The notes below the pieces were generated by a model. It saw nothing but the letters and a program-made list of their open reading frames with translations. It ran no database searches and was not told where the DNA came from. Made by a program: the position numbers and the translations under genes. This document shows, in pieces, positions 51,617 to 54,061 of a stretch of DNA of 64,000 nucleotides (position 1 is the first letter of the stretch; each line of letters begins with the position of its first letter). The stretch comes from Caulobacterales bacterium (GTDB taxonomy: Bacteria; Pseudomonadota; Alphaproteobacteria; Caulobacterales; Caulobacteraceae). The DNA lies in NCBI GenBank assembly GCA_947474395.1, contig CANJID010000012.1:1-64000 (forward strand), given 5' to 3'.

Positions 51617-52627
51617 TCAGAGCTTGCCCAGCAGGGCCTCCAGGGCGGCCATGTCGGCGGGCAGGGGGGACTCGAACCGCAGGGGCGCGCCGGTGGTCGG
51701 GTGGTCGAAGCCCAGCACCGCGGCGTGCAGGGCCTGCCGTTCCAGGCCGGATGCGGCGATGGCCTTGCGCACCGGCTCGGCGGGCGGGCCGGAGCCGTAG
51801 GTCGGATCGCCCAGGCAGGGGGCGCCCTTGGAAGCCATGTGCACGCGGATCTGGTGGGTGCGGCCCGTCTCCAGGGTGCAGGCGACGCGGGCGGCGGTTG
51901 GCCTCGCCTCGGGGCCAAAGACACGCTCGACGCGGTAGTGGGTGACGGCCTCGCGGCCGCCGGATTTCAGCACCGCCATCTTCTTGCGGTCGTGCAGGGA
52001 GCGGCCGATCAGGGTGGTCACGGTCCCCTTCTGCGGCTCCGGGGCGCCGCGGGTCAGGGCGATGTAGACCCGCTCGATGTCATGGGCGGCGAAGCGTTTC
52101 GACAGCGCCTTGTGCGCCGCGTCGGTCTTGGCCGCGACCATCACGCCTGAGGTGTCCTTGTCGAGCCGGTGCACGATCCCCGGCCGCGCCACCCCGCCGA
52201 TGCCGGACAGGCTCGCTCCGCAGTGGTGGATGAGGGCGTTGACCAGGGTGCCGTCAGGGGTCCCCGGCGCCGGGTGGGCGGCCATGCCGGCGGGCTTGTC
52301 GACCACCACGATCTGGTCGTCCTCGTAGAGGATGGTCAGCGGGATCGCCTGTCCCTGCGGCTCGGCCGGCACAGGCGGGGCGATCAGCACGACGTAAGTG
52401 GCCCCGCCCTTGGCCTTGGCGGAGTTGTCGCGGGCGGGCTCGCCTTCGCACAGGACCATCCCTTCGGCCATCAGCGCCTGGAGCCGGGCGCGGGACATCT
52501 CGGGCAGAGCCGCCGCCAGGGCCTTGTCCAGCCGCTCGCCCGCAGCCTCGGGGCTCAAGGTGACGGCGAGCTCGGTGAACTCGCCCTCGACCAGGTCTTC
52601 GTCGGTGACGGGAGGGAGGCTGGTCAG
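51617..52627 (-). CDS. rluD: Pseudouridine synthase RluD family
   Basis: Modifies uridines of 23S rRNA. The 336-residue protein has an S4-like N-terminus (ERLDKALAAALPEMSRARLQ), then the catalytic RPGIVHRLDKDTSGVMV with the active Asp, KTDAAHKALSKRF, and LETGRTHQIRVHMA. There is no ATG/GTG near the expected start: the best candidate is CTG at 52627, which overlaps the upstream gene's stop as CTGA. A TTG at 52558 would remove a conserved strand. The longer upstream frame overlaps the neighbour gene and is a shadow. Confidence 0.88.
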   Translation of the reverse strand: MTSLPPVTDEDLVEGEFTELAVTLSPEAAGERLDKALAAALPEMSRARLQALMAEGMVLCEGEPARDNSAKAKGGATYVVLIAPPVPAEPQGQAIPLTILYEDDQIVVVDKPAGMAAHPAPGTPDGTLVNALIHHCGASLSGIGGVARPGIVHRLDKDTSGVMVAAKTDAAHKALSKRFAAHDIERVYIALTRGAPEPQKGTVTTLIGRSLHDRKKMAVLKSGGREAVTHYRVERVFGPEARPTAARVACTLETGRTHQIRVHMASKGAPCLGDPTYGSGPPAEPVRKAIAASGLERQALHAAVLGFDHPTTGAPLRFESPLPADMAALEALLGKL

Positions 52628-53235
52628 TAGCCCACCGTGAAGCGCTTGCGGATGTGCTCGGGCTTTTCCAGCTCGTCGACGATGGCGACGGCCAGGTCCT
52701 CCATGGAGATCGAGGAGCCGCCCTTGTCGTCGAAGATCACATTGTCGAGGCCCTTGCGGAACTTGCCCGTCCGCGTCCCCGGCTGGAGCATGATCGAGGG
52801 CGAGAGGAAGGTCCAATCGAGGTGGGTGTTGGCCCGCACCTTCTCCAGGGACCCGGCGGCCGGGGTCGCCTCGGCCTTGATGACTTCCGGGAAGCCGGGG
52901 GTGTCCAACAGGCGAACGCCCTCGTTGTTCATCAGGCTGGCGGCGCCGCCGACGATCAGCACGCGCTTGACCCCCGCGGCCTCCGCCGCCGACAGGAAGT
53001 CGGTCACGTCGTTGTCCTTGTGCCGCACCGACAGCACGGCGGCGTCGTGGCCCTGGATCAGCTTGGCCATGTCCGGCTGGTTGGCGAGGTCGCCCGAGCG
53101 GGCGGTCACGTTCGGGCCGGTGGGCGCCTTGGTCGAGTCCCGGGCGATGCCGGTGACGACGTGGCCCCGACTGGTCGCTTCCTTCACCAGCCGCGAGCCG
53201 ACGGCCCCGCTGGCGCCGATCACTGCGATCTTCAT
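52624..53235 (-). CDS. NAD(P)-binding oxidoreductase-like protein (NmrA type)
   Basis: A 203-residue short-chain dehydrogenase relative with MKIAVIGASGAVGSRLVKEA at the N-terminus and LIVGGAASLMNNEGVRLLD in the middle. It has an LDWTFLSPSIML region typical of NAD(P)-binding flavin-reductase-like proteins, but no YxxxK motif is evident. It starts 79 bases after the ferritin-like gene and overlaps rluD by 4 bases. Substrate unknown. Confidence 0.8.
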   Translation of the reverse strand: MKIAVIGASGAVGSRLVKEATSRGHVVTGIARDSTKAPTGPNVTARSGDLANQPDMAKLIQGHDAAVLSVRHKDNDVTDFLSAAEAAGVKRVLIVGGAASLMNNEGVRLLDTPGFPEVIKAEATPAAGSLEKVRANTHLDWTFLSPSIMLQPGTRTGKFRKGLDNVIFDDKGGSSISMEDLAVAIVDELEKPEHIRKRFTVGY

Positions 53236-53314: not shown

Positions 53315-53620
53315 CTACTTGGTCGCTTCTTCCTCGCGGCCGGTGATGGAGCCCTTGGTGAAGAGGTACTCCTTCAACTGCTCGTCGAATTCGGTGTCGT
53401 TCCTGCGGATCCACTCCAGGGCCATCGAGGCGTGCTCGATCTCCTCGTGGGCGTTGTGCAACAGGATCGCCTTCAGCTCTGCGTCCTCGGTGTCATCCGC
53501 GCGCTGGCGGTACCAGTCCACCGCCTCCAGCTCCTCGATCAGGGAGGTGATGGCGTAGTGCATGTGGAGCGTCTTCTTGCTCAGCTTCTCGCGGGGAACG
53601 TGCAGGTCTTCGCTGGACAT
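53315..53620 (-). CDS. Encapsulated-ferritin-like protein (no shell gene nearby)
   Basis: A 101-residue protein whose helical region closely resembles the encapsulated ferritin (EncFtn) family, including EELEAVDWYRQRADD and a following EEIEHASMALEWIRRND. The iron-binding residues of the family, equivalent here to Glu30, Glu60 and His63, are all present. The family makes an open ring that oxidises iron inside an encapsulin cage. Here no encapsulin shell gene adjoins it: neighbours are hisI and an NAD(P)-binding protein, and the C-terminus ends EEEATK without the usual cargo-loading peptide. Confidence 0.83.
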   Translation of the reverse strand: MSSEDLHVPREKLSKKTLHMHYAITSLIEELEAVDWYRQRADDTEDAELKAILLHNAHEEIEHASMALEWIRRNDTEFDEQLKEYLFTKGSITGREEEATK

Positions 53621-53659
53621 CGGATCAATTCCTCGGCTGCAGGCTGCTGAGATAGAGCG

Positions 53660-54061
53660 TCACGGCCGCTCCACCAGGGCGCCGTCCTCCACCACGCGAT
53701 AGAAACACGAGCGGAAGCCGACGTGGCAGGCGCCGCCGTCGCCGCCGACCTGGACCTTCATCAGGACGCAGTCCTGGTCGCAGTCGACGCGCATCTCGAC
53801 CACGGTCTGAAGCTGGCCGGAGGTCTCGCCCTTCTTCCACAGTTCCTGGCGCGAGCGGCTCCAGTAGTGGGCGATCCCGGTGTCCAGGGTGGCCTGCAGG
53901 GCCTGCGCGTTCATCCAGGCGAACATCAGGACCTCGCCGGTGGCGGCGTCGGTCGCCACCGCGGCGATCAGGCCGTCGGCGTCGAAGCGGGGGGCGAGAA
54001 CCGCCCCGCGCTCGAGCGCCTGCTTGTCTGGCGCGGTCGGAAAGGTAGGCGTCGCGGACAT
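53660..54061 (-). CDS. hisI: Phosphoribosyl-AMP cyclohydrolase HisI
   Basis: Histidine pathway enzyme that opens the purine ring of PR-AMP. The 133 residues carry [34 protein letters not shown], the metal residues in [12 protein letters not shown] and a final [11 protein letters not shown]. The ATG at 54061 matches the family. No hisE domain is fused. The ferritin-like gene begins 39 bases after its stop; other his genes are absent. Confidence 0.95.

What the first reader, a model, noticed from the sequence alone, without database searches (positions are those of the whole stretch)
53315..53620. Encapsulated-ferritin-like gene without an encapsulin
The protein keeps the iron ligands of EncFtn (Glu30, Glu60, His63), but it has no cargo-loading tail and the neighbours are hisI and an NAD(P)-binding protein, not a shell protein. 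A free ferritin-like iron oxidase outside a cage would be a new variant.
Basis: partly seen in the sequence, partly recalled or inferred. Interest (0 to 1): 0.65.

Follow-up and report, generated by a model that had tools for sequence, protein, structure and literature searches.

The report
Shell-less EncFtn-type ferritin-like iron oxidase
The gene makes a small iron-oxidising protein of the kind usually locked inside a protein nanocage, but this bacterium and nearly all its relatives with the gene have no cage; that class had already been named, and what is added here is good evidence that it really works without a shell, plus a lead to a peroxide-defence gene set as its possible partner.

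Summary
Window 53315-53620 (-) encodes a 101-aa EncFtn-like protein (PF22277, E 4e-38) with every ferroxidase-centre ligand and no targeting-peptide tail. The genome (99.65% complete) has no family-1 encapsulin and no family-2 encapsulin above cut-off.

The claim that this is new is only partly supported. Tail-less EncFtn relatives were set apart as 'Non-EncFtn' in 2016, called 's-FLP' in 2024, and have a solved structure (3k6c). Whether they still enter shells was left open.

Here, in 80 genomes with relatives, all 11 tailed proteins have an encapsulin, with its gene next door. Of 69 tail-less ones only 2 genomes have one, and there the shell gene sits beside another ferritin-like cargo gene (Fisher p = 7e-12). 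The iron ligands are invariant in all 69. A shell-free ferroxidase is the best reading.

hisI and the NAD(P)-binding gene are incidental neighbours. New lead: tail-less EncFtn co-occurs with the rubrerythrin / Fe-S oxidoreductase / DUF3501 module (23/23 typed alphaproteobacterial genomes against 85/202 without EncFtn), and in some beta/gamma-type loci lies inside that cluster. The link is weak within the window's family and uncontrolled for genome size. Function remains inferred.

The parts
53315..53620 (-). Tail-less EncFtn-like protein (s-FLP class), 101 aa; FOC ligands Glu30, Tyr37, Glu60, His63; entry-site Glu29, Glu32; Trp36
   Evidence: ORF; PF22277 E 4.2e-38; PDB matches; ligand conservation 69/69 for the FOC ligands; model pLDDT 92.4 matching EncFtn chains
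53630..53634 (-). Shine-Dalgarno-like GAGGA, 9 nt before the ATG
   Evidence: read from the sequence
53315..53359 (-). C-terminal end (FTKGSITGREEEATK and stop): part of the common EncFtn core then an end where cargo EncFtn would continue into a 20-50 aa tail with a targeting peptide
   Evidence: alignment of 69 tail-less and 11 tailed relatives
53660..54061 (-). hisI (phosphoribosyl-AMP cyclohydrolase), upstream neighbour; incidental
   Evidence: PF01502 E 1.5e-33; coordinates; in most relatives phoD lies between hisI and this gene
52624..53235 (-). NAD(P)-binding protein (PF13460), downstream neighbour; not found beside any relative
   Evidence: no match near any of 80 relatives
51617..52627 (-). 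rluD-like pseudouridine synthase, conserved downstream neighbour in Caulobacteraceae (start codon approximate)
   Evidence: name from sequence resemblance, not scanned; synteny

Best explanation
It is a shell-free member of the EncFtn family (the s-FLP or 'Non-EncFtn' class). Two helices per chain pair up so that two chains build one symmetric di-iron ferroxidase centre; by analogy with 3k6c and EncFtn the protein probably forms a decameric ring in the cytosol. It oxidises Fe(II) with oxygen or peroxide. Lacking a cage it cannot store mineral itself, so it most likely works as a ferroxidase or peroxide/iron buffer that hands Fe(III) on (for instance to the genome's ferritin/bacterioferritin-type protein), possibly together with the rubrerythrin-RFO-DUF3501 peroxide-defence module. 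Shown: family, fold, ligands, absence of tail and shell, selection. Inferred: ring assembly, ferroxidase activity, partner, physiological role.
For: PF22277 match; fold and PDB match incl. tail-less 3k6c; FOC ligands invariant in 69/69 tail-less relatives; no encapsulin in the genome; 11/11 tailed against 2/69 tail-less relatives in genomes with PF04454 (Fisher p 7e-12), shell gene adjacent to all 11 tailed genes; in the two exceptions the shell gene has another ferritin-like cargo gene beside it. The putative alternative targeting motif LFTxxxI is equally present in tailed proteins that carry a separate peptide, so it is core, not a tag. EncFtn alone is an active ferroxidase but cannot mineralise (PMC5012862). 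Co-occurrence with DUF3501: 23/23 typed tail-less against 85/202 EncFtn-less alphaproteobacterial genomes; gene lies inside the RBR-RFO-DUF3501 cluster in L089 and L095, beside DUF3501 in L090; own genome has the cluster and a 160-aa PF00210 protein.
Against: No activity or assembly data for this protein. The DUF3501 link is not specific to tail-less proteins in the other sample (29/39 against 6/11 tailed, p 0.27), is weak inside the window's own family (5/12 against 9/48, p 0.13), is not controlled for genome size or lifestyle, and the gene is not near that cluster in the window's genome. Absence in MAGs can be incompleteness, though 67 of 69 cannot.
Confidence: 0.75

Rival explanations
1. 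It is still cargo: a shell of an unrecognised kind or a very diverged encapsulin takes it up through its short C-terminus, as the 2024 review considers possible.
For: The review lists a putative peptide LFTD(E/N)KPIAHE for s-FLPs and notes that fusion-FLPs manage with an 8-aa linker. Families 3 and 4 of encapsulins were not searched.
Against: No PF04454 or above-cut-off PF19307 match in the genome; 67 of 69 genomes with tail-less relatives lack PF04454; the proposed peptide is conserved in tailed proteins too; tail-less genes outside Caulobacteraceae have no widely shared neighbour that could be a shell.
Confidence: 0.06
2. It is a di-iron enzyme whose true substrate is peroxide (a rubrerythrin-like peroxidase) and not a ferroxidase feeding iron storage; electrons come from the Fe-S oxidoreductase RFO.
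For: Gene position between RFO and DUF3501 in L089 and L095; co-occurrence with DUF3501 in class Alphaproteobacteria; module proposed as aerobic rubrerythrin adaptation (PMC5114695).
Against: The window's gene is not linked to that cluster; 7 of 13 EncFtn-positive genomes in the relatives sample lack DUF3501; the rubrerythrin itself is present beside it in the linked loci, so the role would be redundant; ferroxidase entry-site residues are kept.
Confidence: 0.25
3. A decaying remnant of an encapsulin system whose shell was lost, with no present function.
For: Tail and shell are both missing; the tree requires at least two changes of tail state.
Against: dN/dS well under 1, invariant ligands in 69/69, conserved synteny with rluD across Caulobacteraceae, spread over several phyla.
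Confidence: 0.02

Closest known systems
s-FLP / 'Non-EncFtn' class, type structure NE0167 (PDB 3k6c)
   Same: Short EncFtn core, no tail or targeting peptide, same fold (59% identity in the structural match), same ligands
   Different: Different lineage within the family and different gene surroundings; no difference of kind was found
EncFtn of R. rubrum (5da5) and H. ochraceum (5n5f, 7oe2)
   Same: Fold, ferroxidase centre and entry-site residues, about 57% and 53% identity in the structural match
   Different: Those have a disordered tail with a SLGIGSLK-type peptide and an encapsulin partner; here both are absent
Aerobic-type rubrerythrin-RFO-DUF3501 module (Cardenas et al. 2016, PMC5114695)
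   Same: Ferritin-like superfamily, co-occurs in Alphaproteobacteria and is linked in L089, L090 and L095
   Different: The rubrerythrin is another protein (PF02915); this gene is only a possible accessory

Membership tests
EncFtn-like family (PF22277) | Profile match above the curated cut-off | tested here: met
   129.4 bits against 27
EncFtn-like family (PF22277) | Ferroxidase-centre ligands Glu32, Tyr39, Glu62, His65 (R. rubrum numbering) | tested here: met
   Glu30, Tyr37, Glu60, His63
EncFtn-like family (PF22277) | Two-helix chain that forms the di-iron centre at a dimer interface; decamer | not testable with these tools
   Monomer model matches EncFtn chains, TM 0.80-0.90; assembly not modelled
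Encapsulin-associated EncFtn cargo (TIGR04535) | Score above the curated cut-off | tested here: not met
   114.9 bits against 125
Encapsulin-associated EncFtn cargo (TIGR04535) | C-terminal tail with a targeting peptide | tested here: not met
   Protein ends right after the core; relatives of the same kind likewise
Encapsulin-associated EncFtn cargo (TIGR04535) | Encapsulin shell gene in the genome | tested here: not met
   No PF04454; PF19307 below cut-off
s-FLP / Non-EncFtn class | EncFtn core of about 95-105 aa without a long tail or apparent targeting peptide | tested here: met
   101 aa; class definition in PMC11202242
s-FLP / Non-EncFtn class | Ferroxidase activity outside a shell | not testable with these tools
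   Needs purified protein
Rubrerythrin (PF02915) | Profile match above cut-off | tested here: not met
   19.1 bits against 22.8
Classical ferritin/Bfr/Dps (PF00210) | Profile match | tested here: not met
   No match listed for the protein; the genome's PF00210 protein is a separate gene

The most novel reading that the evidence does not exclude
Shell-free EncFtn rings are a standing component of the bacterial peroxide/iron defence: they act with the aerobic rubrerythrin, RFO Fe-S oxidoreductase and DUF3501 proteins, and encapsulin loading is a separate, repeatedly gained or lost state of a protein that otherwise works free in the cytosol.
Probability: 0.25. Interest if true: 0.65.

Novelty: new member of a known kind. 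Interest (0 to 1): 0.38.

Why it matters
R. rubrum EncFtn alone is a ferroxidase that cannot mineralise iron; storage needed the shell. A widespread, strongly conserved class that keeps the catalytic centre but has neither tail nor shell shows that the oxidase must be useful on its own. The genome-wide count here speaks directly to a point the 2024 review left open (whether s-FLPs might be encapsulated) and points to a partner module that can be tested. If the link holds, it also gives a biological setting for DUF3501, a protein of unknown role.

Tried and rejected
Hidden targeting peptide: the LFTxxxI segment is equally conserved in tailed proteins that have a separate peptide, so it is part of the core. 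Family-2 encapsulin: only match is 14.7 bits, below cut-off, in an aldo-keto-reductase/folA region. hisI or the NAD(P)-binding gene as functional partner: rejected by synteny. Shared operator upstream: alignment of 27 upstream regions shows no conserved block apart from the ribosome-binding-site region; sigma-70 and terminator scans gave nothing. Mobile origin: no phage match; only 7 plasmid records, all under 60% identity. DUF3501 as obligate partner: rejected, 7 of 13 EncFtn-positive genomes of the relatives sample lack it. The tree rests on 97 columns and leaves many forks open; tail state needs 5 changes, at least 2 forced by well-supported branches; direction cannot be told. Laying the whole genome in the Python box was not available. 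Encapsulin families 3 and 4 were not searched.

Full report
Check of the observation. The ORF stands at 53315-53620 on the minus strand, 101 aa with an ATG and a GAGGA ribosome-binding site. It is an EncFtn-like protein beyond doubt: PF22277 129.4 bits against a cut-off of 27. It scores 114.9 on TIGR04535, the encapsulin-associated ferritin model, below that model's cut-off of 125. The best solved relatives are the encapsulated ferritins of H. ochraceum and R. rubrum and the tail-less NE0167 of N. europaea. Glu30, Tyr37, Glu60 and His63 correspond to the ferroxidase-centre residues Glu32, Tyr39, Glu62 and His65 of R. rubrum, and Glu29 and Glu32 to the entry site. A predicted model (pLDDT 92.4) matches EncFtn chains with TM-scores of 0.80 to 0.90. 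Codon comparison with close relatives shows dN well below dS.

Is there a shell? The window's genome (3.58 Mb, 99.65% complete) has no match to the encapsulin profile PF04454, which rings in three control genomes. The family-2 profile PF19307 gives one 14.7-bit match under its cut-off, located in an aldo-keto-reductase/folA region. The genome has one EncFtn-like gene only.

Relatives. A scan of genome contigs gave 80 loci. By sequence they fall into 69 short proteins that end just after the core and 11 with a 20-50 aa tail ending in peptides such as TIGSLK, FTIGAI or SLGIGS. PF04454 was then sought in all 80 genomes. All 11 tailed genomes have it, and the shell gene lies directly downstream of the tailed gene in all 11. 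Of the 69 tail-less genomes two have it. In one (L061) the shell gene is preceded by a different 121-aa ferritin-like cargo gene ending in GLGVGSLKK (PF02915); in the other (L069) the shell, split over two contigs, is preceded by another EncFtn gene, frameshifted in the assembly. Fisher p is 7e-12. Loci are not independent, but the tree needs five changes of tail state, at least two forced by well-supported branches, so the association is not one event.

The putative targeting sequence. The 2024 review (PMC11202242) suggested LFTD(E/N)KPIAHE as a possible peptide of s-FLPs and called the matter unclear. The leucine, phenylalanine and isoleucine of that segment are present in 11, 11 and 10 of the 11 tailed proteins, which have their own peptide further on. 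The segment is therefore part of the common core. With no shell gene in 67 of 69 genomes, the simplest reading is that tail-less EncFtn works free in the cytosol.

Surroundings. In 26 Caulobacteraceae-type loci the gene is followed by rluD, usually at once; in 23 of these phoD was found upstream on the opposite strand and hisI further up. The window, L017 and L026 have no phoD there, so hisI is adjacent. No relative of the NAD(P)-binding gene occurs near any of the 80 loci. These neighbours mark a stable chromosomal position and say little about function. Outside Caulobacteraceae no neighbour is widely shared.

A functional lead. In L089 and L095 the gene lies between a CCG-domain Fe-S oxidoreductase and DUF3501, with a rubrerythrin upstream; L090 shows the DUF3501 side. 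This is the aerobic-type rubrerythrin cluster of Cardenas et al. 2016 (PMC5114695), with EncFtn as a fourth member. The window's genome has the cluster on contig C19 without EncFtn beside it. In 240 alphaproteobacterial genomes drawn evenly, 35 of 38 with a strong EncFtn match have DUF3501 against 85 of 202 without (p 6e-9); of those whose tail could be read, 23 of 23 tail-less and 5 of 7 tailed have it. Cautions: genome size and lifestyle are not controlled; in the window's family the excess is weak (5 of 12 against 9 of 48, p 0.13); in the 50-genome sample tail-less and tailed do not differ (29/39 against 6/11). I treat it as a lead. The paper searches made here found no paper reporting the link, within the limits of the held library.

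Mechanism. Established for R. rubrum EncFtn: ferroxidase active, cannot mineralise alone, shell needed for storage (PMC5012862). By inference from identical ligands this protein oxidises Fe(II) at a symmetric dimer interface and probably forms a ring. What becomes of Fe(III) without a cage is not known; the genome's PF00210 protein (160 aa) is a possible acceptor, and the rubrerythrin module a possible partner under peroxide stress.

Novelty. The class was separated in 2016 as Non-EncFtn and named s-FLP in 2024. This gene is a new member of that known kind. The added value is the genome-wide evidence against encapsulation and the DUF3501 lead.

Noticed in passing
L089:2375-5203; L095:8137-10888; [quoted passage not shown]
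   Followed up: partly
L097:1115-2301: In the genome of L061 the encapsulin has its own 121-aa rubrerythrin-type cargo ending in GLGVGSLKK, beside a separate tail-less EncFtn elsewhere: two ferritin-like lines in one genome.
   Followed up: partly
L108:1492-2157 and L109: Encapsulin split over two contigs with a frameshifted EncFtn gene in front of it, in the genome of the tail-less L069.
   Followed up: no
L014 and L010 (genome G067): Two tail-less EncFtn genes in one genome; the copy in L014 loses the EncFtn frame after about 65 residues.
   Followed up: no
L084 (CP051228.1): Record titled Mesoflavibacter (Bacteroidota) carries a tail-less EncFtn that groups with alphaproteobacterial ones; the record may be misnamed.
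   Followed up: no
plasmid records CP069301.1, NZ_CP044544.1, NZ_CP025114.1, NZ_CP133114.1: Bradyrhizobium and Rhodopseudomonas plasmids hold EncFtn relatives at about 37-42% identity, annotated hypothetical.
   Followed up: no
window 52624-53235: NAD(P)-binding (PF13460) gene between the EncFtn and rluD genes is absent from this place in all related loci: a recent insertion in this lineage.
   Followed up: partly
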